NCBI GenBank assembly: GCA_026874595.1 | Contig: CM049307.1 | Location: 37,924,862-37,988,861 of the forward strand | DNA: 64,000 nt | Direction of reading: 5' to 3' | Source of the DNA: Sipunculus nudus | Taxonomy: Eukaryota; Annelida; Sipuncula; Golfingiida; Sipunculidae | In this document: positions 11,930 to 56,155 of the stretch, one piece after another | Position numbering within the stretch: position 1 is the first letter of the stretch | Layout of the letters: every line of letters starts with the position of its first letter | The notes under the pieces: generated by a model | What the model was told of the DNA's origin: nothing | The model's input: the letters and a program-made list of their open reading frames with translations, nothing else | The model's database searches: none | Position numbers and translations under genes: made by a program

Positions 11930-14900
11930 TACAATACAATCCAAGAGACATAATACAATCCAATTGACATAACATTCAATTGAAATAATACAATCAAGGG
12001 GACATGCAATCCAAGGGACACAATAAAATCCAAGAGAAATACAATCCAAGGGACAAAATACAATACAAGAGACATATAATCCAAAGGACAAAAAATAAAT
12101 CAAAGAACTTGATACAATCCAAGGACATTTTATAATCAAAGAATATAATACGATCAAAAAGGACATAATACAATCAAAGGACATAATACAATCCAAGGAA
12201 CCTAATACAATCCAAGGACATAAACAATCCAAACCAAAATACAATCCAAGGACATAAACAATCCAAACCAAAGGACATAATAAAATCAACGGTTATAATA
12301 CAATCAAGGGAACATAAATAAATCAAAGGACCTAATACAATCCAAGGACATAATATATTCCAAGGACTTAATGCAATCCAAAGACATTAAGTAATCCAAG
12401 GGCAAAATATAATCCAAGGACGTAATACAGTCCAAGGACATAATACAATCCAAGAAGCATAATACAAGATAAGGGAAATAAAGTAATCCAAGGACATAAT
12501 ACAATCTAGGGGCATAAAACAATCCGAGGAACATAATACAATTCAAGGACATAATATTATCCAATGAAAACAATACAACCCAAGAAACATAATCAAACAA
12601 AGACACATAAGACAATCCAGGGACATGAAGCCATCTAAGGGCATAATTTTATCCAAGAACTTGATACAATCCAAGACATAATATAATCAAAGAATATAAT
12701 ACGATTAAAGGGACATAATACAATCAAAGGACATAATACAATCCAAGGAACATAATACAATCCATGGACATAAACAATCCAAGAAGATAATTCCACCCAA
12801 GGGAATAATATAATCCAAGAACTTGATACAATCCAAGGACATAATATAATCAAAGAATATAATAAAATCAAAGGTTACAATACAATCAATGGTACATAAA
12901 TCAATCAAAAGGCCCAATACAATCCGAAGACATAATATAATCCAAGAACATTAAATAATCCAAGAGCAAAATATAATCCAAGAACGTAATACAGTCCAAG
13001 GACATAATACAATCCAAGAAACATAATACAATCCAAGGGAAATAAAGTAATCCAAGGACATAATACAATCCAAGGACATTAAGTAACAAAGGCAAAATAT
13101 AATCCAAGAACGTAATACAGTCCAAGGACATAATACAATCCAAGAAACATAATACAATCCAAGGGAAATAAAGTAATCCAAGGACAAAATACAATCCAAG
13201 GATATAATTTGATTCAAGGACATAATACAATCCAAGGACATAATCCAATCCAAGAACAAAATACAATCCTAGAACATAATAAAATCGAAGAACATATTAC
13301 AATCCAGGGACAAAATACAATCCAAGGGCATAATACAACCCAAGAACATAATATCATCAAAGGCCCAATATACAATCTAAAGAATATAGTACAATTCACG
13401 GATATAATACAATCCAACGAACATAATACAACCAAAAAATCAGTCAAATACAGTCAAAGGGACATAATACAATCAAAGGACATTATACAATCCAACGAAC
13501 ATAATACAATCCGAGGACATAATCAATCCAAGAATTTAATTCCACCCAAGGACATAACATAATCAAAGGTTATAATACAATCAAGGGTACATAATGCCAT
13601 CAAAGGACCTAATACGCTCCAAGGACATAATACAATCCAAGGACATTGTATATTCCAAGGAAGACAAAACAATCCAAGGGATACAATATAATCAAAAGGC
13701 CATTATACAAAGGCCAATAATCAAACAAACATAATACAACCCAAGGTACATAATACAATCAAAGGCACATAGTACAATTTAAGGACATAATACAATTCAA
13801 GGACATGATACAATCCAAGGACATAATTTAATCCAAGAACTTAATACAATCAAAGGGACATAACACAATCCAAGGACATAATTTAATCGAAGTATATAAT
13901 CCAATAAAAAGGACATGATGCAATCCAAAGAACATTATACAATCCAAGGATTTCATACGATCCAAGGACATAAAGTAATCCAAGGGCAAAATATAATCCA
14001 ATGACATAATACAATCGAAGAAAATTAATACAATCCAAGGGACATAAAGTAATCCAAAGACATAATTAAATCCAAGGACATAATCGGATTCATGGACATA
14101 ATACAATCCAAGGAACATAATAAAATCGAGGAACATTTTATAATCCAGGGACAAAATACAATCTAAGGGAAATAATACAATCCAACGAACATAATACAAC
14201 CCAAGGAACATAATACAATACAAGGACGTAAAGCAATCGAAGGGCGAATATAATCCGAGAACTTAATATAAACAAAGGTTATAAATCAAACCAAGGACAT
14301 AAAACAATCCAAGGACATATACCAATCCAAGGAAAAAACATTACACATGAACTTAGTACAATCCAAGGACATGATTCAATTAAAGGTATAATATAATCCA
14401 AGCAACATTATAAAATCGAAAAACATATTATAATCCAAGGACAAAATACAACCCAAGGACATAATACAATCCAAGAACATAATATCATTCAAGGAACAAT
14501 ATACAATCCAAAGAATATCGTACGATCCAAGAACATAATACAATCCAAAGAACACAATACAATCCAAGGACATAAAACAATCCAAGGGAAATAATACAGT
14601 CCAACGAACATAATACAACCCAAGGAACATAATACAATACAAGGACATAAAGCAGTCGAAGGGCGAATATAATCCGAGAACTTAATATAAACAAAGGTTA
14701 TAAAACAAACCAAGGACATAAAACAATCCAAGGACATATACCAATCCAAGGAAAAACATTACACATGAACTTAATACAATCCAAGGACATGATTCAATTA
14801 AAGGTATAATATAATCCAAGCAACATAATAAAATCGAAAAACATATTATAATCCAAGGACAAAATACAACCCAAGGACATAATACAATCCAAGAACATAA

Positions 14901-16688
14901 TATCATTCAAGGAACAATATACAATCCAAAGAATATCGTACGATCCAAGAACATAATACAATCCAAAGAACACAATACAATCCAAGGACATAAAACAATC
15001 CAAGGGAAATAATACAGTCCAACAAACATAATACAACCCAAGGAACATAATACAATACAAGGACATAAAGCAATCCAAGGGCAAATATAACCCGAGAACT
15101 TAATATAAACAAAGGTTATAAAACAAACCAAGGACATAAAACAATCCAAGGACATATACCAATCCAAGGAAAAACATTACACAAGAACTTAATACAATCC
15201 AAGGACATGATTCAATTAAAGGTATAATATAATCCAAGCAACATAATAAAATCGAAAAACATATTATAATCCAAGGACAAAATACAACCCAATGACATAA
15301 TACAATCCAAGAACATAATATCATTCAAGGAACAATATACAATCCAAAGAATATCGTACGATCCAAGAACATAATACAATCCAAAGAACACAATACAATC
15401 CAAGGACATAAAACAATCCAAGGGAAATAATACAGTCCAACGAACATAATACAACCCAAGGAACATAATACAATACAAGGACATAAAGCAATCCAAGGGC
15501 AAATATAACCCGAGAACTTAATATAAACCAAGGACATAAAACAATTCAAGGACATAACACAATCCAAGGACATATACCAATCCAAGGAAAAAACATTACA
15601 CAAGAACTTAATACAATCCAAGGGATATAATAACATCAAAGAGATATAATACAATCCAAGGAACATAATACATTCTACGGACAATATAATCAAAGGATAT
15701 AATAAAATCATAGGGGCACAATGCAATCAAGGGAACATAATACAATCCGAGGATTTAATACAATCCAAGACATTATACAACCCAGGGACACAATAAATTT
15801 CAAGGACGTAGTACACTCCAACGAACATAATACAATCCAAGGACATAAAGCAATACAAAGGCATAATATAATAAAAGGAATATAATACAATCCAAGGACT
15901 TCAAGCGATTCAAGGTCACAACATAATCCAGGATCTCAATACAATCCAAGGACATAATACATTCCAAGTAATATACATGTAATATAATTAAAGAGACATA
16001 ATACAATCCAACGAACACAATACAACCCAAGAAACATAATACAATCTAAGGGACATACATTCCAAAGAATATAGTACCATCTAAGGACATAATACAATCC
16101 AAAGACATAATACAATCCGAAGGATATAATACCATTCAAGGAAATAATACAATCCTACGAACACTATAAAGTTAAAGGGACATAATACAATCCAAGGGAC
16201 ATTAATCAATCCACGGACATGATACAATCCAAAGTATTCAAGAAATTCCAAGGGACATAATACGATCAAGGAGACGTAATACAATCCGAGCATAATACAT
16301 TCCACGGACAATATAATCAAAGGATATAATAAAATCAAAGGGACATAGTGCAATCCAAGGAACATAATACAAGCCGAGGATTTAATACAATCCAAGGACA
16401 TAATACGACCCGAGGAACATAAAACAATCCAAGGACATGATACAATCCAAAAGACAAAAGACAGTCCAAGGACACAATAAATTCCAAGGACGTAATACAA
16501 TCCAAAGAAAACAATAAAATCCAAGGACATAAAGCAATCCAAAGGCATAATATAATCTTAGAAACACAAAACAGTCCAAGGACATAAAGCAATCCAAAGT
16601 CATAATATAATCCAAGAACTTAATACAATCCAAGGACATAATACAATCCAAGGAACATAATATAATTAAAGAGACATGATACGATCAT
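11930..16688. repeat. 4.8-kb satellite array, ~19-bp monomer
   Basis: Throughout the block a monomer close to ACATAATACAATCCAAGGA repeats head to tail, with 1-3 nt length and base variants such as ATCAAAGG, ATCCAACGA and ATCCAAGAA. At ~19 bp per unit the array holds roughly 250 monomers. Because the period is not a multiple of three and stop codons are rare in some frames, the minus strand shows many spurious ORFs rich in LDCIMSL and LGLYYV. These are not genes. Local secondary duplications occur, for example near 12,110-12,240 against 12,655-12,780, and a ~124-bp period near 12,985-13,200. There are no unique spacers, so this is not a CRISPR-like array. Confidence 0.95.
14225..15520. repeat. 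418-bp higher-order repeat within the satellite
   Basis: The marker AAGCAATC(G/C)AAGGGC recurs at 14,230, 14,650 (as AAGCAGTCGAAGGGC), 15,068 and 15,486, a period of 418-420 bp. Units two and three differ at only a few positions, while adjacent 19-bp monomers differ much more. This is the hallmark of a recently amplified higher-order repeat. The fourth unit diverges after about 15,520. Confidence 0.9.
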
Positions 16689-22510: not shown

Positions 22511-25330
22511 ATGAAGCCACGAGTTGCACTAAATGATCATCAAACCATGTCATGTATGAAGACGGAGAGCCACACAGTGGGTACAGAGGTGGAGGGGTTG
22601 TACCACGAGAAACAAGTCAAGGAGCTTTGTGCCCTGCATGCACTTAATAACCTGTTCCAACAGAAACAGGCTTTCACCAAAAAGGATTTTGATGCAATAT
22701 GTCTCAGGTAGGCTGCTTCTGGTCAGCTTTATCCATCTGTCTGTCTGTGAATGTTTTCATATGCAAAGAAATATCTTAATATCCCCGATGGTTTTCATTT
22801 CTAATCAACCTGGACTATTTTTTTATATATGCTTACCTAACTTGTTTTGTTCTTACTTGATTTTCTTTATTGATTACTTTTAAAATTTTATAAACTTTAA
22901 CGTTCATGTACACAGGTATTCATACGCTCCCGAGGCAGCGGAAATCTTGTGCTTCTAAAGAAGCAACCGATTTTCATGCTGCTAGCTTTGAACATTTATG
23001 ATATATTTAGACACCAGGTGGCGGTTTGTTGTCCGCTGAAAAAAACGTGCGTATGATGTGACAAGCCCATAGCTGCGCTTCAAGCGCCGTTTGATGACAG
23101 TTTACAGTCGAATTTTAATTGCTCCCTCTGCATTCTCGTATCATCGATGGATTCGATTCTGACAGTATGACTGTGTTAGCGTTGCCATGCATCTGTTGTC
23201 TGCAGAACTGAAACCAGCTAGCGAGGTGTGCATGCAGCCTTTGTTGTTGGGTTTCGTTTGAATTACAGCTCACCGGCCGGGCATCCTATGTGCCCAAGGC
23301 CCTATGCAAACCGTGTCTGGGGCAATTCTCTCTGAGCCTGTGGCCTGTTCAGACGTTTACCGGGGCTATGAGCTGTCACTCAAAATGAAATTAACATGAT
23401 TGGCTCCGTGTATTCCTCGCTTGGCTGTGTCTTCCAGCACAAGGTCTCATCTGATTGGGCAAAAATACAGTGCTCCCCTCTGGTGTAGCAATCCAGGATA
23501 TTAGGTCATAAAAAACAGCGCTTACCATATAGGTAGTAGGCCTATAGTTAAAGCGCTGTGTTAAGAGCATAAGGTATTCATAGTTTTGTGTTGTTTTACC
23601 TACACACATTTTTAAGTTTTAAATGAAATTTAAAATTTTGTATTGACTCAAAATTCAGTTTTATGCAAAATAGAAAAATGGTAGAGGAAAGACAAAAAAA
23701 TGGTTTTTAGATATTGTAATTTAGTTTGATATCAGCCCAGAAAACAATGGTTTCCTGTTACTGGGTGCTTAAAATAGTTATTACCAATAAAATAAGAATA
23801 AAAACATTATTTTAAATGTCAAATGAAAATTAATGATTTAAAAAAAAAATAATACCTTCAGAAAAGAAACACTGTACCAGGTTTAAAATGATGTATAGTA
23901 TATACAGTCTAATATGAATTTTAAATGTTTTGAATGATATTAGATGCACAGATGTTTGCCATGAATGGTACATGCATGATACTCATATGGCCAACAAGGT
24001 TTAAAAATGTATTTGTCACAGTGTGATAATTAAGTTACATGCATGTTGTTTACAAACACATTTTTAACCTTTACATCTGGGAAGTTTATCAGAAAAAAAA
24101 AATCAAATGTAAATTGAAACTTTGCATGTTAGTGTGCATTATGCCATTGTATAAACTATTAACAGTTTTATATATAACAGGAAAGTTAACATTTCAGGTT
24201 GTCTCCAAACAAGTTTTTGAATCCACATCGCAGTATCCTGGGTCTGGGGAACTATGACGTCAATGTGATAATGGCAGCTCTACAAGACAAGCAATGTGAT
24301 ACCATCTGGTTCGACAAGAGAAAGTATGACACTGTTTAAACAATGATTTTAACCAAACCTCTGGTGTATATATATTAAAAAATATGTTTCAAAAATTTCC
24401 AGAAATGTCCAGAGCATATATAAATTCACTTATATTTGGAAAATTTATGTATTTAGAATGGGTCAAAATGTTTTTGGATAATAAATTTGAGAGAGTAATT
24501 AATCGTTTTTATGATAATGGTGAATTGTTTGACTGGCACCACCCAAAGTGTGATGTGGCTCCATTTCAAATTAAATGTCTAGGAATTTTAAATGTAATAT
24601 TCTCTATAGCACAAGATTCTTAACTGTGTGTGAGACTCCATCCAATCAGATCTGTGTTGTCAAATATATGCACTTATCCAGCAACATACAAATGTGTTGT
24701 AAAATTTTATTTTAATTGATACCATTAGAGACAGAGTTTGAAATAGGAATACAATTGTGGGAAAAAGCAGGTTAGTCCAAAATCTTGCAAAAGAATTCTT
24801 ATCAGTTTTGATATAAAGACCCCTGAATTTAACAGAAATAATATAGATGGTATACCTTAAGAAATACATTTAATTTTCAGTTTTTGGGAGAGATTTTTAT
24901 ATATATCATATAGATTGGGTCTGTCTAATCCTTTTTATTAACATTAGTGTATGTGACATGTAAAATACATGTATTGTTAAATGTCTTTTTATTTCAAACT
25001 TAATTCAGTGTGTGATATTTTACTTTCAGAGACCTCAAGTCCCTTGTGCTTGAGAACATTAAAGGTTTCATCTTGAACATCCCATCGGAAATGAGATTTG
25101 GGGTTGTGAGGTTACCAATTCCACGAAAGCACTGGATATGTATCCGCTGTATAAACGGGCAATATTACAATTTTGATTCCAAGCTTGACTCTCCAGAGCT
25201 CATTGGGAAACCAGCTGATGTTATAAGTTACCTCCAGAGGGAGCTGCAGTCAAAAGAGAAGGAACTCTTATTGGTTGTTGATAAGGCGGTGTCTGATGCA
25301 GCGTCATGGCAACAAGATGCAACAAAATAG
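22511..25330 (+). CDS. JOSD: Josephin-domain deubiquitinase (JOSD1/JOSD2-like), three coding exons
   Basis: Cysteine protease of the Machado-Joseph (Josephin) family, which cleaves ubiquitin from proteins. Exons are 22,511-22,707, 24,198-24,323 and 25,030-25,330. The junctions CTCAG^GTAGGC / TTTCAG^GTTG and GAGAAA^GTATG / TTTCAG^AGAC keep the frame and give 207 residues, near the usual 188-202 for JOSD1/2. The catalytic Cys is C40 in [10 protein letters not shown]. The catalytic His is H142 in RKHWICIR. The third residue is D157 in YYNFDSKL, where ataxin-3 has Asn and JOSD proteins have Asp. [15 protein letters not shown] block lies at about 82-95. The protein ends soon after the Josephin core, with no ubiquitin-interacting motifs, so it is not ataxin-3. 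The start is supported by an upstream in-frame stop; M13 or M16 are alternatives. Whether it is closer to JOSD1 or JOSD2 cannot be settled by eye. Confidence 0.93.
22708..24197 (+). other. Josephin gene intron 1
   Basis: This 1.49-kb intron starts GTAGGC and ends TTTCAG. It contains the inverted copy B of the 650-690 bp TIR element at 22,923-23,571. I see no exon-like sequence in the rest. Confidence 0.85.
22923..23571. mobile_element. Non-autonomous TIR DNA transposon, copy B (649 bp)
   Basis: The element starts TACGCTCCCGAGGCAGCGG and ends with the complement of TATGCTCTTAACACAGCGC. It is flanked by an exact 9-bp target-site duplication AGGTATTCA (22,914-22,922 and 23,572-23,580). It is the reverse complement of copy A at 10,137-10,830. 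Shared landmarks include GTGCTTCTAAAGAAGC and the CCAATCAGATGAGACC region. No transposase is encoded. It sits in intron 1 of the Josephin gene. Confidence 0.85.
24324..25029 (+). other. Josephin gene intron 2
   Basis: This 706-bp intron begins GTATGACAC and ends TTTACTTTCAG. A 79-codon ORF inside it (24,384-24,623, plus strand) matches no family I recognise and has no splice context, so I do not call it a gene. Confidence 0.85.
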
Positions 25331-37200: not shown

Positions 37201-40200
37201 AGATGCCAGAGTATCCCCAGACATAGTAGGCCCCCCCCCCCCCCACCCTTTAAGAATAGGCCCCCATTTTTTTTAGCAGCATATACTGACACTTGGCAAG
37301 CAATTATTGTTTCGTCCATCTATCAATCCACAATCTTTTTGAAGATGTTGGTCCTGTGACCTTGACCTTTGACCTCATGACCCCAAAATCAATTCGGGTC
37401 TTGCTTTTCCAAAGGGACATATACAAGTCAAGTTTGAAATCTATACATCAATAAAAGCAGGAATTATCCAGAAACTAATTTTTGGACAGATGGCTCCTGT
37501 GACCTTCACCTTTGACCTTGTGACCTCAAAACTGATAGGGTTCTTCCTCTCTTGGCAGGTGAACTATATGTGCAAGATGAAAGGTCTGAGATGAAATGTT
37601 TGGCTGAAAATGCATCCATATCTTTTTAAATAGTATCCTGTGACCTTGACCTTTTACCTCATGACCCCAAAATCAATTTGGGACTTGCTTTTCCAATGGG
37701 ACATATACAAGTCAAGTTTGAAATCCATATGGCTATCAACACTGGAGATATCATAAGAGGTGTGTGGTTTTCACCAAATATGGACACATTAAAGGTCAAG
37801 GCCACTCTCATGGTAAAGGTCATGACCCAAATGGAAATAGACCTCATCCCATAACCCATCTCTCTACATCTAATATGAAAGAAATCTGTCCATTAGTTTT
37901 TGACTTATAATGCTTACAGTACTGTCAAGTGGCAATTATGGGGGTATTAAAAGGCGTAAAAACAAGAAAAGGATAAAAGGTGGCACCACCAGTTTCCGGT
38001 ATATCGCAAGGCTATCCAAGATCTTTGGTCTCCTTGATTTTTGGACCAGTCCATGCAAGCTTACTTGAGATATTTAAGAATTTGTGTTATTTTCAGCAAA
38101 AATGGACCTAATCAAGGTCAAGGTCACTCTCCTAGCATAGGTCATGACCCCATTTTAAATAGGCTTCGTCCCCTTACCTATATCTATACAAATGTAAAGT
38201 TTGAAAAAGATCAGTGAAATATTTTTTGAGTTATCCCGCTCACAAGTTTTTTCTGCGGCGGCAGGAGGGACCGTCGTGAAACCATAGTATCCCGACTTTG
38301 TCTGGGGATACAATAAACATCATCCAATAACCCATATCTATGTATATGCATAATATGAAAGAAATCTGTCCATCAGTTTTTGACTTATAATTTGCTCAGA
38401 GTACTGTAAAGTGACAATGATGGGGTATTAAACGGCACGAAAACAAGTAAAAGAATAACAGGTGGCACCACCTGTTTCCCGTACATGACAATAGTATCCA
38501 AGATCTTTGATCAAGTTGATTTTTGGACCAATCCATGCATCCCTTATTGAGATATTAATGATTTTGTGTAATTTTCACCATATATGGCAATATTAAAGGT
38601 CAAAGCCACTCTCATAGGAAAGGTCATGACCCCATTTATATATACATCATCCCATAACCCATGTCTATGTATATGCATAATATGGAAGAAATCTGTCTGA
38701 TAGTTTTTGACTTATAATGCTCATAGCACTGTTAAGTGGCAATGATGGGGGTATTAAACGGCACAAAAACAAGTAAAAGAATTACAGGTGGCGCCACCTG
38801 TTTCCGGTACATGACATTACTATCCAAGATCTTCTGTTAAGTTGATTTTTGGACCAATCCATGCATTCCTTATTGAGATATTAATGATTTTGTGTGATTT
38901 TCACCATATATGGCAATATTCAAGGTCAAGGCCACTCTCATAGGAAAGGTCATGACCCCAATTTGAAAAAATATCATCCCATAACCCATATCTATGTATA
39001 TGCATAATATAAAAGAAATCTGTCCATTAGTTTTTGACTTATAATGCTCACAGTACTGTAAAGTGGCAATTTTGGGGTATTAAACGGCACGAAAACAAGA
39101 ATAATAGGTGGCGCCACCAGTTTCTGAAACACGACAATCCTATCCATGATCTTCCATCAACTTGATTTTGGGATCAATCCATGCAAGATTTTTTTGAGAT
39201 ATTTAAGAATTTGTGTGATTTTCCCCCCAATTGGACCTAATCAAGGTCAAGGACACTCTCCTAGTAAAGGTCATGACCTCATTTAAATAGGCGTTGTCCT
39301 CTCACCCATATCTATACATATACCATGTTTGGTAAAGATCCGTGAAATATTTTTTGAGTTATCATGCCAACAAGATTTATATGCGGTGGCGGCGGCGGCG
39401 GGACCGGTATGAAAACATAGTATCCCCCAACTTTGTCTGGGGATACAATAATATTATTTATTTATAATAATCAATTTGTGTGATTTTCCCCCCAATTGGA
39501 CTTAATCAAGGTCAAGGACACTCTCCTAGTAAAGGTCATGACCTCATTTAAATAGGCGTTGTCCTCTCACCCATATCTATACATATACCATGTTTGGTAA
39601 AGATCCGTGAAATATTTTTTGAGTTATCATGCCAACAAGATTTATATGCGGTGGCGGCGGCATCGGGACCGGTATGAAAACATAGTATCCCCCAACTTTG
39701 TCTGGGGATACAATAATGTTACATCCCTGACAAAAAATCTCTAGCTTCAGCAATCCTCTTGTTAAGGGAGTAAATATATTTCTTGATTTTTTTAAAAAGT
39801 GCATTATGTTTGGGCCCATAACTTAAAACAATTACGCAATACTGACATCATTTCTGGCATGTGCATAGCGAATGTATAGAAAAATATGTATATTATATAT
39901 GATCAAAGTCAGATCAGTGGTTTTGATATTAGGCAATCTTACAGTGTAACAATGGGTTTTTAATGGAAAAAATGAAGTTTTTCATTAATATTTCGAAGGA
40001 ATTAAGTCCTAGTGATCGAATTCTCGGCATGGTAGGGGATTTTGGAGACATCTTACTGTATGCTAAATTTAAGGAACTTAGAGCTGAACTTTAGAGCATA
40101 ACTTTAAGCTGGGAAGCTGAGCTTTAGCAAACTGCATAACACTAGCTTGATGTAAACTTGATGTGACATGGTGCTTGAAAACTTGAATAAAATCTACAGT

Positions 40201-45700: not shown

Positions 45701-48700
45701 AAGATTCTTTAAGTGCACTTCTTGTATTTCCAAGAAATATTCATTTAAGGAAACTCTAGACTGAAATGTGATCGGGAAACTCTAGACTGAAATGTTATTG
45801 AGAGACTCAAGACAAAAAATGTTATTGGGAAAACCTGTGATAATTTGGGGGCTGTTGGATGAGCACTTATGTGAACACTGACTATGAATGTTACATTTAA
45901 TAATAACGTTAACGTACAAACGAGGATGCTGGATACTGGACAACGCCACACCATTGCATAAGCTCACAGGTTCGCTAACAAACGTGACTGAACATGACTT
46001 ACCTGTTCTGGTCCTCTACTTCATCCTTTCTAAGCATCATTGCTACTACAGCTTGTCTCAGTTCTCCTGTGACACAGAACAATGTGAAGTTTTGCAAATT
46101 AAAGTCAGTATATCACAATGAACACATCAACATATGGTAGTGGCTCCCTCTACTCAGAAGGCAGCTGAAGGTTGTTTTCTACCAAGAAAGCAAAGGATTA
46201 TGTTTTCAGCCATATTTGTTAGTCTGTTCTGTGTTAGATTTGCCTGCAGCCAACAGATAATGATAAGCACTGATATGATAATTATAAAATAAATTTTGAT
46301 GATAAAGTATACAATTCATGAACAAGTCAATAACACTATAAACTAAGGCATATATTTGAAGACATGATGACCATGGACTACATTGAAAACCAAGCTATAT
46401 AGTACACAGTACCTCTGTCATTTAGTCTCTGCTGCCAGTGACATAAAAAAAACTTTTTTTCTTAAGTTTTTTAATATCAAGGTTACGTACTTACCTGTTG
46501 ACATGGTTTCATGGGGAGGACTTGATGGGGGTTTGGGGTCTATACCGCCGTCTCCTTGGGTCCTCATTCCTTCACTGTAACTGGAAGACGAAATACACCT
46601 TCAAGGAACAGGTCTTTACCTTTAGTGACCAACTACTTAACTGAGGTTGGACTGCTGACTTACATTGTAATCAATCAATGGAGTGTTATGTAACCACTAA
46701 TAGGAAGTCTCATTCCATGGTACCTGTTATGGCTTGTTTAATGTTCACTGCTAATTAACCTAATTAACTTAACACCTTTAACTAGGGCAAGACTACGGAG
46801 TCAAACTGTCAATAATCAACTGCACCCCATCCACTAGATTTACCTCATCTAAACAATATATGGGTATGAAACCACAACTATATATTCAATTAAAATTTGA
46901 TGGAACCATCCAAACAGAAAACCTTTACAATTTCAGTATGAGTAGCCCACCTGTGTATATTTGACCTTCACTATGACAGGAGAAGGCTAAGTATGACTGG
47001 ATAAGCAATCTGTTACTACCTATTTCATGATACATTTACAGGCATCTGGTAATTATATATAATAATTTTTGTAAGCTATGAGACACCATGAACATATTCA
47101 CTGCTTATCGCTCTGACCTTTTTGCACAATACTTAACTATCTGGAACTGATGTGGCTTCCATTATGAGAGGAAGGCTATCAGTGCAATAAAACCTAAGGT
47201 CATTGAGATGTTATATGGCAAATATTTGTTAATACCTGGATGCTAGTCCTTTCTGAGCTATCTGCAGGGCAAATGCAGCATTTTCTGTAGCAGCACCATA
47301 TGCAGGGATTTCTTCTTCTACCACTGAAATATAGGAATAAAATAAATAAATTCTATAATGTGCTTTCCATTTCTATGACATTTATGCCATGCTGCTTCTG
47401 TTTCTAAGAGTTCTGCAGTCTCTTTCAATGACATAATTTATTTTCATGCATTGTGTCTGTTATATCAATTATCATTTTTCCTGGGAAATAGTTCATCTTT
47501 TTAATACTTTGACTCTTACAAAACTGGTAAAACATCCAATTTATAATTATAGATACTTTGTTATCAAAAGTGAATAAGTTTAAATGTGACAAATGTAACA
47601 TTTAAATTAGTGCCTTCCCAGAGTATATTTCCACTGTGGGACAGTAACTTATAAGATTATATTTCCCCTGTGTGACAGTACCTTCCATTATATATTTCCC
47701 CTGTGGAGGAGTCCTTTACTGGAGTATATTTCCAGTTGGAAAGTATTTTACCTAAGTATATTTCCCTTGTAGGAGAGTACTTTACCTGAGTATTTATACC
47801 CCGTGAGAGAGTACTTTAACCGCGTACATTTTCCATGTAGGAAAGTACTTTACCTGAGTATATTTCCCCTGTGGGACAGTACCAGAGTACATTTCCCCTG
47901 TGGGAGAGTTCTTTACCTGAGTATATTTCCCCTGTGGGACAGTACCTGAGTATATTTCCCCTGTGGGAGAGTACCTGGGTATATTCCCCCTGTGGCAGAG
48001 TACTTTACCTGAGTATATTTCCCCTGTGGGAGAGTACTTTACCGGAGTATATTCCCCTGTGGCAGAGTATTTTACCTGAGTATATTTCCCCTGTTGGAGA
48101 GTACTTTACCTGAGTATATTTCCCCTGTGGGAGAGTACCTGAGTATATTTCCCCTGTGGGAAAGTACCTGAGTATATTCCCCCTGTGGCAGAGTACTCTA
48201 CCTGAGTATATTTCCCCTGTGGGAAAGTACCTGAGTATATTCCCCCTGTGGCAGAGTACTCTACCTGAGTATGTTTCCCCTGTGGGAGAGTACTCTACCT
48301 GAGTATATTCCCCCTGTGGGAGAGTATTCTACCTGAGTATATTTCCCCTGTTGGACAGCACTTTACCTGAGTATATTCCCCCTGTGGCAGAGTACTTTAC
48401 CTGAGTATATTTCCCCTGTGGGAGAGTAAATGGACTCAAAAGGACCTTCTGTAGAGCCAAAGTCACGGCCAACAGGGGTTAAGTTTGATGTTATAAAATC
48501 TGCAGGTACTTCACTGTAATTGAATTGATATAAAGAATATTAGACCTACACTGATAAACCTGAATCAGTGAAATGCTAAATCAGCAAAGTTAAAGATTTA
48601 ATTTAAATAAAAAATTTAAGCATTATCATTTGTAATTTGTAATATTTCAAAGGTAAAGTTCATAAAATATATAGACATAAATGTCTTTTTCTTATGTTTT

Positions 48701-51700
48701 CTGTATTAAACATATATTTATTAATATTATGAAAAGTCTGTATGTCAAATATCATGACGGTTACAGGCAATTAGATGTAACATTTACAGCTGGAAAACGT
48801 GGATGCAAAGAATGGCTGTTTTGTCAAAATGATTACCAGCAGTGAGGAATATGAAATGAATTACGACACAGGTTTATAAGGGCAAGCCAGGTAAGCACAG
48901 CCTCAGGTAACCATAACTGATACAGTGACTCACCTGGCCGATAAATCTGCTGAGCCCATTGAGCTTACATCTTCCTGCAAAGACTGTGAGTGCATCCTGA
49001 CAAGGGACCCCTGGGAGCTTATTCGTGGGATTCCCGATGATACCACCTGACCTGATCCTACAGATCCTGTGTCATCGGATGTGGGATCAAAGTCCATCGA
49101 TCCCTCCTTAAGACTACTCCCATCTGGGGATTGTTTTGCAGGTAAACTGGATGTGTCATTGTTGTATAACGCCTCTGCAGAGAAGTCAAGTGATGAAGTC
49201 TTTATGTTAGTATTCATGTCCATTGCATTAGTGTTTCTGTGTTCTTGAGTATCATCAAGCCTATTATTGTTATCACTTAGAGAACCTGGTCTGTTCACAG
49301 TACTGCTTTCTAAAGGGCTATCTGTTGTGTTACTTATATTTTGTATTTCACTCATATCATTCAATGACTCCCTAACATCCAAGTTCTTTCCTGCATCATT
49401 AACAAACATTGATGCAGGTTCAGAGTTCCGTCTTGTTTGAGTATTATGTCGATACGTGGAGTCAATCTTACTGTCTTGGACCATTGTAGTTGCTTGAACA
49501 CACTGAGCCACCTGGGGCTGTCTTGTGCTGCCCCCTGGTGACACATGGACAGACTCCAGGCTGGCCTGACTAGAGTTTGGCAGGGTGGGGCTGGTGATGG
49601 CAGAGCTTGGAGATGAACTGTAACAACTGATGCTGTCCTCATCAAATGACACCAACTTTGGGAGTTTCTTCTTTCTTTTCTTCTTCTCTTTCTTCAGGTC
49701 TGTCAATCAGATAAAAAATAAACATGTGATTGATACTGCAAATTGTACACTGTCTTTTCTAGTATAACCTCAGTTCCTTTACCAATAACGTCTACAGCAC
49801 ATACTAGTGACTCTAATGGCGATGGTTTTCCTTGAATATTCCTGTCTATATCCCTTTAAAACAATACATTAAATACAGATGATGACAGTAAGCTTTATAA
49901 AGGCTCAAACAGTAATATACAAGTCAGATGTAAAAACAAAAGGTTTAAAACCATAAACAGATTCCAAGAATGATCACCAGATGGCACTGACGGGCAGTTG
50001 AGGTATTACTGTAAATAAAATACAGTAAAATCTCACTAACATAACAACATGCGAAATCAGCCAAAGTGTAGGTGTTGGTGGGGTGGTTGTGTTAGAAGGG
50101 GGTTTTGTGATAATTAACTCTTAGTCTGAGACAAAAAAGTGGTCTGTTTGGTGGGGTGGTTGTATAAGTGGGGGGTTTCAGTGATAATTTACTTTAGGCT
50201 GGGACAAAAAAAAGTAGTCTGTTTGTGGGTTGGTTGTGACAGCGGGGTGGTCATCAGGTGAAATTTCACTGTTCATGTTTGCTGCGATTTTGAAGTACCC
50301 GTAAAACCACTGGACCACCCCTGTATTAAATTGCAAAAATGAACAGAAGCAAGTGAATATGAAGTTTCATCATCACAAAGTTACACAATATTATTTTTTA
50401 AATAATTTAAAAAAAACACCAACAACAACAAAACTCCTCTATGCTTTCAAATTTATGAAGATATTTCAATATTTTTGGGCATAAATCTTTATCCAAAACT
50501 ATTGCAACTAGAATACGGGTAGTCGACAAGCGACTTCGTGTATCTGCCAAAATCAGAGTGGAAGTGGGGGAAGTGAGGCATGGATTGAGTGGCAAGGGGA
50601 AATAGAGTGAGGTGTGTTGCATATAAGCATGGATGTCTGGCCCCTACCCTGATGTCTGCAGCTGAAATGTGTATGTAGGTTGCGCCACCTACCACAAAAT
50701 CCAGAAAGCTGTCCAAGTTGTATACATATGCAAAATTTTAGGCAGATAAGTCAAACAACTACATGTATATGAGTGATTTTATCTCACAGCAGACAAACAG
50801 AAGGACTTGTGCAAAAATGGTGGCAGGTGGCGCCACCAATTTTGTGTATGATTAAGAACTATGTGAGATCTATACACATGCAGAAGTTTCGGGGGGATAT
50901 GTCTAATCAGTCCAGAGATATAAGCCTGAATGTCTACAGCATTAACATAAATGTAGGTGGCGCCACCTGCAAAAAAATCGAGAAATCTATACAAGATGTA
51001 TAAACACCCAAAATTTAGGCAGATAAGTCAAACCACTACTGAGATATGAGTGATTTGAGCCCACTGCAGACAAATAGACGGATGCTGTGCAAAAATGGTT
51101 GCAGGTGGTCCCTCCAGTTTTGTGTATGATAAAGAGCTATGTGAAACCTATACACATGCAAAATTTTTGGCCCATTCGGTCAAACGGTTCCCGAGATATG
51201 AGCTTGGATGTCTGCAGCATAAACTGGAATGTAGGTAGTGCCACCTGTCATAAAATCAAGAAAGCTGTTCAGGTTGTATAAACCTAAAAAATTTTAGGCA
51301 GATATGTCAAACCACTGCTGAGATATGAGTGAAGTTATCCCAAGGCAGACAAAAAGAAAGACGCTGTGCAAAAATGGTGGCAGGTGGGACCACCAGTTTT
51401 GCTTATGATAAAGAGCTATGTAAGATCTAAACACATGCAAAATTGTGGCCCAATTGGTCAAACTGTTCCTGAGATATAAGCATGGATGTCTGCAGCGTGA
51501 ACGTGGATGTAGGTGGCGCCACCTGTCATAAAATCAATAAAGCTATCCAGGATGCATACACATGCCGAATTTCGGGTGAATTAGTCAAACCACTGCAGAG
51601 ATATAAGTGATTTTAACCCAAGGCAGACAAACAGATGGACACTGTGCAAACATGGTTGCAGGTGGCGCCACCATTTTTTGTGTATGTTATAAAGCTATCC

Positions 51701-54700
51701 AAGGGCTACATTTGTACAAATTTTTTTTCCTTGTGGGTCTAACGGTTCCCGAGATATGTGGGTTTTTGTGTGGAAACAGACACACAAATGGACGCTGGGC
51801 AGAGAGGAAAGGTCAGAGGTCAACGCAAATTTGTTAGGCACCAGTTCACGTGACCTGATAATTGGTGTAAGTTTTGGAAAAATCAGTCCAGTAGTCTCAG
51901 AGGAGTTCTCCGGAAACGAATGCGGCAGTGAAACCCGGTCAATAACATAGTATCTGCAAAACTTTGTTTTGGCTGATACAATGAATGAATATTCTTCTGG
52001 TATCTGACACTCTACATTAATATTGTTTTTTTTTTCCCCAACAAATAGTACAAACAATAAAGTACATTGTACATAAAGACAATATGTAGACAAAAACAAT
52101 TTGAAAGTCATACATACAAAACAGATACAAATAACAAAGGTACATTACAGAGATAAAACTGTTGTTCTTATTCAAATGCGGGTTACATGGGTTTTTTAAT
52201 CTTTATGTTGTTTTATTTGTTTTCTATATATATGTTTTGAAAGTTCTTCCACTTTTGTTTATGTTTCTCTATTTTACCCTTCGCACTCACAATTTGTTTT
52301 TCCATTTTATAAATCTGTGTGACATAATTTTTATACACAAAAAATGCTGGTAATTTCTCTCTACATTTGCAGGTATATATATAATATTTTAATAATAGTA
52401 ATAAAGTATCCAGTAGGCTGTCAACTGAGATGTTTAATATTAATACTGTTTCTGTTACATTGCCTAAGTTTAAAGATTGTTCCAGGGCGTTTGACCAATT
52501 TTCAAAAGCTATTAACAATTTATTGGTTACTTCACTGTGATAAAATATATGTAGATAAGTTTCCTTTTGTTTTTTACAGAATGAACAGAGCTCAGTTTCG
52601 CTTTTCTTCATTTTATATAAAAAAGGATTGAGTGGTAAATTCTATGTAATAATTTAAATTGGAAAATTCTTAATTTCTCTGAAATAGTAATTTTGACAAT
52701 ATTCTTGAATGCTTTAAATATTTTTCCTTTATTTTGTAGCCTTAGTTCACCAATCCATTTCTCTATTTGATGTTCTGGTTTAGAAGAGACAGAATTAATA
52801 ATATTTAAGTATACAAACTGTGTTGTATTTTTCATATTTATTATTTTGTCCACCATATATTCTTGTACTTCTAAACAAGGATTATTCTTTAACTCTCTTT
52901 TCCAACAAGTTGGGATTGCATCCACTAAACCTACATATTTTATAAAATTTATATTAACCTTGTATTTGTTAGTGAATTCTTTAAATGGCAAAAATGTTAG
53001 ATGGTTTCCTTATTTTTTGGTTATGTCAGAAAGCGTTTTTATGCCTGCCATATTTAATTTCTTATAAAAAACTACTGTACCTTTAACCTTTATATGAGAA
53101 TTATACCATAAGGTTTGTAATTGAATTTCATGTGTTTTGACGGTCTTATTAAAACTGTATTTGCACCAATGATGTAACACATCTTTCCAGAACGGGTCGC
53201 ATGAGTCACTGAAATTGTGTATATCGTGTTCTTTTAAATTGCATTTAAAAATATATGAACCCAGGTTTTTAAATTGTACATTAATAATCTGTCTCCAGCT
53301 ATTTTCTAGAGGTCCATTGAGGAACCGTTTAACCCATGAAATTTTTAAAGATTGTATCTTAGATGGAAGATGAATCATATTCAGCTCTCCTTTATTTTTT
53401 GGTGCAATCATTGTAGATCTTTTAACTTTATCTGGTTGGTTGTTCCAAATAAATTTAAATATTAATTTTTCAATTTCTTTGATATAATTATTTGGTGGAC
53501 TTGGTAGTACTAAGAATAAATAAGTTAGCTGAGAAATTATGCAGGTTTTTACAATAGTTATTCTGCCTGCAAGAGACATTATTCTGTTGCTCCAGGTATT
53601 AATAATAACTTTAATCTTACTCAGGATTTCTTTATAGTTGATCTTTATAATTTTTTTTCCATTCCGGATGAATGGAGACGCCTAAGATTTTTACAGGATT
53701 GGTGCACCATTGTAAGCCTAGAGATTTTAATGTATAATGATTATGTGTGTTAGCAGTTATTGGCATTATTATTGTTTTTCTATATTTACTTGGAGTCCCG
53801 ATATTTGTTCAAAATCTGAGAATACTATTAAGGTTTCTTGCACTGACCGAGGCCCCCCTGTTAATGTTAAAACTGTATCATCAGCATATTGTATAATTTT
53901 GTGTTCTTTCTGATCTATTATTACTCCATTTATGTTACTATTGTTCCTGATTTCGGTTGCTAAAGTTTCTGCTGCCAGAATAAATAAATAGGGAGAAAGA
54001 GGGCAGCCCTGCCTTACACCTCTAGTTACTGGAAAGAATTCTGTAGCCCAGCCATTATTTAATACACAACTGTGAATATTGCTGTATAATAACTTTATCC
54101 ACTTCCTGAATTCAGTTCCAAAGTTAAGTATTTTAAGAGTATCTTGAATACATGGCCGTTCTAATTGATCGAAAGCTTTTTCAAAGTCCACTGATAACAA
54201 GTAACCACATTTATTAGTTGCTCTTAAATAGGAGATTATGCCAGTAATTTTAATAATATTTTCTCCAATATACCTATTTTTCATGAATCCAGTTTGATCA
54301 GTGTATTAAAGAGGGTAAAACTAGTTTAAGTTTATTTGCTTATGTTTTTGCTAATATCTTGTAGTCTGTATTTAGAAGTGAAAGGGGGCGCCAGTTCTTC
54401 AAATATAAATGGTCTTTTTCTTTCTTTGGAATGAGGCATATAATTCCTTGACGCATAGTTATTGGAAGGCAATCCGTATTGAAGGAATAGTTAATAGCAC
54501 TTACAAAATGTTCTTTTAAATCCCCCCAAAATGTTTTATAGAACTCAACTGGGAATGTGTCAGGACCTGGCGATTTATTAAGAGACATTGATTCAATTGT
54601 AGATTTTAATTCCTCCTCTTTAAATTCTTCCTCACATAATTCCTTTTCATCTTCATCAAGAATTTTAAGATGTTCTGTTGAAAGAAAATTTCTATTTGGG

Positions 54701-56155
54701 CATTTGAGATAATCTCTGGCTGTATATAAATTTTTATAAAATTGTAATTCTTCTTTTAAAATATCTTTGTGTTCTGAAATAATTTTCCCATGTTGATCTT
54801 AGTTTTAGTATAGATTTTTTATTGTAATTTCTTTTCTCCAAATTGAGAAAGTATTTGGTCGATTTATCTCCCTCTGAGTACCATTTGGTTCTACATCTCA
54901 CTATTGCACCTCTGTTTTTTTCTTCAATAAGTTGTCTGTGTTTGTTAACTGCTTCCTCCCAGCTTTCTCAGTCTTTAATTTCACCTGTTGTATTAAATAT
55001 ATTATGTAGGTCATAATTTTTTTTCTAAAAGTTTTATATTTTGTGTTTTCAATTTTTTCCTTTATACTGCATAAGCTATGGTTTCTTCTCTTATTTGGCA
55101 TTTTATGGTGTCCCATAATAATGTTGGGTTTGTTTCTTTATTATTAAGGACTGTTGTTTTTATACATTCTTTTACTGTGGTTATGTAACTTTCTTCGTTT
55201 AACAGTGAACAGTTTAATTTCCAGAAGCCTGGTCCATGTTTATGTTCTGTTTTTATAATACTGATAGTAATTAATGAATGGTTGCTTTTATATCTTGCTT
55301 TAATTTCTGACTGACTGATACTATTAATTAGGCTATCGTTAATTAGAAATTAATTTAATCTGCAAAACACTGGATCAGGTAGATATCTATGCCATATATA
55401 TTCCAAACTATTAGGGTGTTGTAGTCTCCAAATGTCCAACAGCTGTTCTAATTCTATCAAGTGATTTATTACTTGTCTAGATTTATCATGACTGTTAGAA
55501 TTTCCTCCTTTTTTATCTAATGCCGGATTTAAAGTTAGATTGAAGTCTCCTCCTATTATTAAACTGCCTGTAGCATGGTGATTCTCAGAGTTAATCAAAT
55601 CTTCATAGAACCTAGGATCATCCCTATTAGGTGCATAGATGTTTACTGAGGTGAGGTCGTGTTCACATATTGTTATATTAATAATTAAATATCTTCCAAA
55701 ATTATCATTAATTACCTCTTTAACCTGAATTCCTGATCTGTTTTTAATTAGTGTGCAAACCTTTTGCTTGGCTAGTGCCCTGGCTAAAATATATCTCATA
55801 ACCCCATTCTGTTTTCCACCTATTTTCGCAATCTATTGTACTGTTGGTCTCTTGTAAAAATATGACAGAACTTTTCTTTCTATTCAACCAATAAAAAACT
55901 TCTATCCTTTTTGAGTAACTTGCTAGACCTCTAGCATTAAGTGATGTTATCTGACAAATATTGGTCATAATTGGTTATATTGATTAGTTTTTCTGAATTG
56001 GCAGAAATGCCAATATATATGAATATTCCTGCATCTGTTAATGTACCTACAATACATACAACATATACAGTAGACATGTAGAAATACATAAATACCTTAA
56101 ATAATATAAACATTGACATAAACATGAGATAATAAGCTTACCAGTTCAATAAAAA

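What the first reader, a model, noticed from the sequence alone, without database searches (positions are those of the whole stretch)
47622..48513. Minisatellite has amplified an exon end with its splice sites, creating many in-frame 15-nt micro-exon look-alikes in SNX29
The last 28 coding nt of the exon at 48,401-48,513 and its donor are the first unit of an 800-bp array. Every unit keeps CCCACAG, then 15 nt (GGGAAATATACTCAG), then GTAAAG or GTACTC. That is acceptor-like, micro-exon, donor-like. The real exon ends in phase 1, so each extra 15 nt would add GEIYS without a stop or frameshift. The array could create competing donors, variable protein length or splicing noise, and copy number may differ between individuals. 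I see the structure directly; use of the extra sites is inference.
Basis: partly seen in the sequence, partly recalled or inferred. Interest (0 to 1): 0.78.

Follow-up and report, generated by a model that had tools for sequence, protein, structure and literature searches.

The report
Exon end copied into intronic minisatellite
The last 28 coding letters of one exon of the trafficking gene SNX29, together with its splice signal, recur 24 times in a row in the following intron, and about a dozen other exon-like stretches sampled from the same animal genome show the same layout, so the cell is offered many near-identical splice sites of which probably only the first makes a working protein.

Summary
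The core observation is real. On the minus strand, SNX29 exon 48513-48401 ends in 28 nt that equal the consensus of a 25-unit array filling the first ~780 bp of a 1,077-bp intron. A search of the 1.43-Gb assembly with up to 3 mismatches found the unit only here, so the array grew locally. The splicing interpretation is half right. All 21 intronic GT donors, if used directly, truncate SNX29. The frame-safe GEIYS micro-exons need array acceptors that look weak. The kind is known: amphioxus 'mirages' (minisatellites spanning exon-intron boundaries, PMC3087553), and human IFI6, where such donors are used. New here: it recurs in this genome. Of 17 arrays with tandem CAGGTAAGT (the listed part of a longer hit list, C1-C7), 13 start at a coding-looking exon end. 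Protein homology is clear in three (XPD, ABCC2, a PDI/thioredoxin domain), moderate in one (permease), weak in two. My reading: exon-seeded, mostly neutral minisatellites, with splicing held to the first donor. No RNA, orthologue or second haplotype could be examined; whether exon ends are preferred seeds is untested.

The parts
48401..48513 (-). SNX29 coding exon g (113 nt); its last 28 nt (48401-48428) are unit 1 of the array
   Evidence: open frame joined across exons f-l, AG acceptor and GT donor; 28/28 identity to the unit consensus
48395..48400 (-). genuine donor GTAAAG of exon g
   Evidence: only donor of the array that joins to exon h in the SNX29 frame without stop or shift
47620..48400 (-). 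24 intronic units (12 of 34 nt, 6 of 29, 4 of 33, one each of 32 and 35)
   Evidence: TRF; unit table
47854..48400 (-). units 2-18, homogeneous part (mean 1.5 edits in 28 nt); contains a 158-nt multi-unit block present twice at 94% identity (47880-48037 and 48073-48230)
47620..47853 (-). units 19-25, decayed distal part (mean 5.3 edits; 3 of 7 have lost GT)
48363..48365 (-). in-frame stop TAA met 12 codons past the exon end if donors 1 and 2 are skipped
47854..47868 (-). best single micro-exon candidate (unit 18): 15 nt GEIYS, donor GTAAAG, 27 nt free of AG before its acceptor
   Evidence: prediction only
47236..47323 (-). next SNX29 exon h (88 nt)
   Evidence: AG acceptor, frame continues; its donor GTATTA scores low (-0.9)
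48934..49699 (-). preceding SNX29 exon f (766 nt)

Best explanation
This is an exon-seeded minisatellite of the 'mirage' type. A stretch covering the last 28 nt of an SNX29 exon and the first nucleotides of the intron was duplicated in tandem, and the copies multiplied into the intron by ordinary slippage or unequal exchange (shown: structure, no copy found elsewhere, homogeneous proximal and decayed distal units; inferred: the order and mechanism of events). The spliceosome most probably uses the first donor, because it is the one paired across the exon with the upstream acceptor (inferred), and the array is removed with the intron and is close to neutral (inferred). The same layout is present in other genes of this genome (shown for three with clear protein homology, likely for ten more).
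For: The exon copy equals the consensus exactly, and no match was found elsewhere in 1.43 Gb at up to 3 mismatches, so it is no dispersed repeat. Units 2-18 are uniform and 19-25 decayed. All 21 intronic GT donors would truncate SNX29, yet GT is kept in all of units 2-18, as expected if these donors are little used. Tandem CAGGTAAGT arrays recur: 303 matches (units, not arrays) against 132 for the reversed motif. Of 17 arrays inspected, 13 begin, as read by eye, at a coding-looking exon end with an AG acceptor upstream. The exon end is conserved protein in XPD (PDB match over residues 1-31 of 31, E 3.6e-7; exon ends at the array's first donor), in ABCC2 (residues 2-50 of 50, E 1.4e-6) and in a PDI/thioredoxin domain (Pfam 6.9e-11; NCBIfam 4.8e-13). 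In such genes the exon copy is most simply the ancestral one. In 11 loci compared, 14-36 exon nt are shared with the unit. Amphioxus mirages are reported not to disturb splicing (PMC3087553, passages; PMC3902484, passage).
Against: No RNA was available, so use of the first donor is inferred from frame only. No orthologue of this exon was found, so exon-first origin of the SNX29 array is argued mainly by analogy with XPD, ABCC2 and the PDI-like gene. In human IFI6 downstream repeat donors of such an array are used (PMC4526556, passage). The reversed motif also forms tandem arrays (132 matches), and perhaps half of all CAGGTAAGT in such a genome are true donors (my estimate, no call), so recurrence does not show that exon ends are favoured seeds. 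Four of 17 arrays showed no exon (L040, L046, L047, L048), and 7 of the 13 counted have no protein match.
Confidence: 0.75

Rival explanations
1. One reading: array acceptors and donors act as optional 15-nt micro-exons (GEIYS), or longer in-frame inserts, giving SNX29 isoforms of variable length.
For: Single micro-exons keep frame in 16 units, and 33 frame-preserving stop-free single inserts exist in all; several donors equal the real one; IFI6 precedent for donor use.
Against: Acceptors have an AG 11-13 nt upstream in 16 of 17 intronic sites; the first two would need 19- or 53-nt introns; 21 of 21 direct donor uses truncate; in 11 other arrays only 10 of 202 later exact donors are in frame without a stop (frames of some exons assumed from their open reading). 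None of this excludes rare use.
Confidence: 0.1
2. Array donors are used at low rate and yield truncated, decayed SNX29 mRNA, so array length tunes SNX29 dose between individuals.
For: A competing donor of equal matrix score lies 34 nt downstream, and all array donors lead to stops.
Against: No expression or genotype data; GT is not purged from units 2-18.
Confidence: 0.12
3. An intronic minisatellite spread by conversion into the exon and overwrote its end.
For: The exon copy is identical to the consensus, as homogenisation would also give.
Against: No copy of the unit found elsewhere; in XPD and ABCC2 the exon part of the unit is conserved coding sequence.
Confidence: 0.07
4. Assembly artefact (collapsed or invented repeats).
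For: Tandem arrays are hard to assemble; the copy number may be wrong.
Against: Units differ from each other, with 29-, 32-, 33-, 34- and 35-nt lengths and a block duplication; the same layout is seen in 13 of 17 sampled arrays.
Confidence: 0.02

Closest known systems
'Mirages': minisatellites spanning exon-intron boundaries in amphioxus Adh3, globins, troponin C, PGBD5 (PMC3087553 and PMC3902484, passages seen; Canestro 2002 seen only as a citation)
   Same: Tandem units span an exon-intron boundary, many but not all units carry AG/GT signals, inner units are homogenised and boundary units are not, and the reported mRNA is spliced normally.
   Different: Here the unit is 29-35 nt (globins 150-160 bp, Adh3 10-72 bp) with 25 units (BflGb6: 6 and 3); the genome is probably a bivalve, not a lancelet (inference); no RNA test.
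Human IFI6 (6-16) minisatellite with multiple donors (Turri 1995, seen only as a citation; use of repeat donors from a passage of PMC4526556)
   Same: A minisatellite at an exon end multiplies the 5' splice site.
   Different: In IFI6 two downstream repeat units are used as donors and give protein isoforms; in SNX29 every direct use would truncate.
Internal tandem repeats at exon-intron boundaries of human duplicated genes (PMC2812944, passages)
   Same: Minisatellites of about 30 bp at exon-intron boundaries; 27 intron modifications reported.
   Different: Those vary between paralogues and have RNA evidence of new introns.
Intron gain by tandem duplication (potato RdRp, PMC4974935, abstract)
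   Same: Duplication of a segment carrying splice signals.
   Different: No new intron is shown here; the array lies in an existing intron.

Membership tests
Mirage minisatellite | tandem units span an exon-intron boundary | tested here: met
   28 exon nt + donor in unit 1, 24 units in the intron
Mirage minisatellite | many but not all units carry splice signals | tested here: met
   CAG|GT in 17 of 25, GT in 22 of 25
Mirage minisatellite | homogenised inside, diverged boundary units | tested here: met
   units 2-18 against 19-25; block duplication
Mirage minisatellite | regular splicing not disturbed | not testable with these tools
   no RNA data
Mirage minisatellite | length instability between haplotypes or cells | not testable with these tools
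   one place only in the assembly
IFI6-type multiple-donor array | array donors give translatable isoforms by exon extension | tested here: not met
   21 of 21 intronic GT donors truncate
Micro-exon | short exon length keeping frame | tested here: met
   16 units give 15-nt stop-free inserts
Micro-exon | usable acceptor | tested here: inconclusive
   11-13 nt free of AG in 16 of 17 intronic sites, 27 in one; 16-48 nt, or none within 58, at 16 real acceptors
Micro-exon | seen in mRNA | not testable with these tools
   no RNA data

The most novel reading that the evidence does not exclude
Exon-end minisatellites are a standing, genome-wide feature of this (probably bivalve) genome. Dozens of genes, among them XPD, ABCC2 and SNX29, carry runs of donor copies right behind the true one, up to about 60 exact CAGGTAAGT in one array, and splicing stays accurate by position alone: the spliceosome takes the first of many identical donors. 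The arrays are a reservoir from which new exons and introns can arise.
Probability: 0.5. Interest if true: 0.68.

Novelty: new member of a known kind. Interest (0 to 1): 0.5.

Why it matters
How the splicing machinery picks one of several equal donors is, as far as I recall, mostly studied with engineered duplications. Here nature supplies them: in the XPD gene seven exact CAGGTAAGT donors in one array, and in a PDI/thioredoxin-domain gene 63. One long-read RNA library would show whether position alone decides. The case also extends exon-boundary minisatellites beyond the lancelet and human examples that I found, and offers raw material for the birth of introns and micro-exons.

Tried and rejected
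Dispersed repeat family: rejected, because no match outside this array was found at up to 3 mismatches. Further units elsewhere in the window: none above shuffled background (best 21/34). Donor-by-donor in-frame extension of SNX29: rejected. Orthologues: a scan of bacterial/archaeal contigs with exon f found no relative, a scan of viral contigs with the unit found none, and the genome tool says this genome has no relatives there. Pfam of three SNX29-region open frames gave nothing over a cut-off (two more frames in that call belong to the LINE), so the gene name rests on the recalled human probe, and the frame was checked only across exons f-l. Taxon: GFP family none and mollusc haemocyanin domain none, but in both the control genomes rang nowhere, so these are inconclusive; C1q at least 141 matches, 150 of 203 candidates scored; contigs C1-C7 and C12-C17 measure 61-111 Mb and C18 52.5 kb (C8-C11 not measured). 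'Probably a bivalve' is my inference from recalled traits. L040, L046, L047, L048: no exon recognised at the array edge (4 of 17). Of the 13 counted, L041, L042, L045, L050, L053, L055 and L056 have no protein match; L043 (PH, E 0.016, below the cut-off; nothing in NCBIfam) and L051 (DNA-PKcs, E 0.61; nothing in Pfam) are weak; L054 (permease, Pfam 1.3e-4 but below the cut-off; NCBIfam 0.002; no permease in the PDB search) is moderate. In a first form of this report I had called L054 significant; mended. L051's first exact donor lies one unit behind the exon's own GTATGT, so its exon-shared length was not measured; L053 was not in the comparison. The acceptor-gap figures for array sites were off by one and were redone. 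The matrix scores and the U1 5' end used are recalled values. Exon ends and acceptors of the 17 loci were judged by eye. Not achieved: listing the reversed-motif arrays, other donor variants (AAGGTAAGT) and an acceptor-side pattern; the server did not answer, so whether exon ends are preferred seeds, and how many such arrays the whole genome holds, is untested (one search listed only about a third of its 303 matches).

Full report
What is there. The minus strand carries an SNX29 gene (tblastn with a recalled human probe; 16 exons modelled from 60542 to 41601). Exon g is 48513-48401 (113 nt) and the next exon h is 47323-47236; the intron is 1,077 bp. The joined frame of exons f-l is open and runs from ...FESIYSPTGEIYS into VVEEEIPAYG... 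and on to ELRQAVVAMM, which resembles the human protein (recalled). Other exon joins were not checked. The array is at 47614-48429.

The overlap. The last 28 nt of exon g equal the unit consensus, 28 of 28, and the match stops abruptly upstream. The intron holds 24 more units: 12 of 34 nt, 6 of 29, 4 of 33, one each of 32 and 35. Units 2-18 differ from the consensus by 1.5 edits on average, units 19-25 by 5.3. A 158-nt block recurs at 94% identity, so growth included multi-unit duplications. In the 1.43-Gb assembly all 19 matches with up to 3 mismatches lie in this array and the reversed control gives none.

What it could do to splicing. The genuine donor CAG|GTAAAGTA is middling: its matrix score of 3.7 is fourth lowest of 16 donors modelled in this gene, and it pairs with U1 with one bulged base (-9.8 kcal/mol). 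Of 24 intronic units, 6 equal that matrix score and none exceeds it, and 8 have U1 energies of -9.5 to -9.9 (matrix and U1 end recalled). If such a donor is used directly, donor 2 shifts the frame with a stop 43 codons on, and donors 3-22 meet a TAA (48365-48363) 12 codons past the exon end: 21 of 21 truncate SNX29, ahead of what I recall as its coiled coil and PX domain. Micro-exon use needs an array acceptor as well. Sixteen units would then give a clean 15-nt insert and 33 single inserts in all keep frame, but in 16 of 17 intronic sites another AG lies 11-13 nt upstream, against 16-48 nt at 14 real acceptors and none within 58 nt at 2.

Is it alone? A pattern of three CAGGTAAGT spaced by 10-40 nt gave 303 matches in the assembly against 132 for the reversed motif (matches, not arrays). 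Only about a third were listed (C1-C7); they form 17 distinct arrays, and I fetched about 10 kb around all 17. Read by eye, in 13 of 17 the array edge is a coding-looking exon end with an acceptor upstream (L041-L045, L049-L056); in 4 (L040, L046, L047, L048) I saw none. Clear protein matches: XPD/ERCC2 (PDB E 3.6e-7; NCBIfam rad3 5.4e-5), ABCC2 (PDB 1.4e-6), a PDI/thioredoxin domain (Pfam 6.9e-11; NCBIfam 4.8e-13). Moderate: a permease (Pfam 1.3e-4, below the curated cut-off; NCBIfam 0.002; no permease in PDB). Weak: PH domain (0.016), DNA-PKcs (0.61). The other seven had none. In 11 loci compared, 14-36 exon nt are shared with the unit. In 11 loci there are 202 later exact donors, of which 10 would extend the exon in frame without a stop (the frame of exons without homology was taken from their open reading), so the arrays do not look tuned to lengthen proteins. 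Because XPD and ABCC2 are conserved proteins, their exon copies are most simply ancestral and the arrays derived: exon seeding is the direct reading there, and by analogy in SNX29.

Comparison with print. Amphioxus mirages are the same arrangement (PMC3087553, passages; PMC3902484, passage) and were reported not to disturb splicing. Human IFI6 uses two downstream repeat donors (PMC4526556, passage; the original paper was not held). Human duplicated genes show repeats of about 30 bp at exon-intron boundaries with new introns (PMC2812944, passages). Tandem duplication can create introns (PMC4974935, abstract). In the listings of searches, which cover only the held open-access library, I saw no report of mirages in molluscs.

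Limits. If it were a lancelet the recurrence would be expected. Perhaps half of all CAGGTAAGT in such a genome are true donors (my estimate, no call), so nothing here shows that exon ends attract minisatellites; it shows that they are not spared. No RNA, orthologue or second haplotype was available.

Noticed in passing
L044 (G000:C2:8508300-8518200) and L052 (G000:C5:2322500-2332400): Exon-end arrays in an ABCC2-like and a PDI/thioredoxin-domain gene with unit lengths of 42 and 48 nt (multiples of 3); read-through stays open for 62 codons in L052 and for the 100 codons read in L044, so these are the better candidates for real isoforms.
   Followed up: partly
L053 (G000:C6:27271000-27280900): An array of 47-nt units running over 8 kb to the end of the fetched stretch, 66 exact donors, starting at an exon that reads like a fibronectin type III end (ITGLKAGYTYTFK; recalled motif, Pfam did not confirm).
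   Followed up: partly
window 52213-55832, - strand: LINE-like retrotransposon remains (reverse transcriptase Pfam E 2.8e-24, weak endonuclease match) between SNX29 exons e and f.
   Followed up: no
window 11933-16687: A 4.7-kb array of an 18-bp unit (about 260 copies) with strong strand skew (GC skew about -0.2, AT skew about +0.46).
   Followed up: no
window 25016-25330, + strand: An open frame ([29 protein letters not shown]...ELLLVV) that looks to me like a Josephin-type deubiquitinase exon; recalled, not searched.
   Followed up: no
window 47236-47323, - strand: The exon after the array has a poor donor (GTATTA, matrix score -0.9), the weakest of the 16 modelled.
   Followed up: no
window 38312-39721 and 50651-51698: Tandem repeats with long units (326, 265 and 278 bp).
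   Followed up: no
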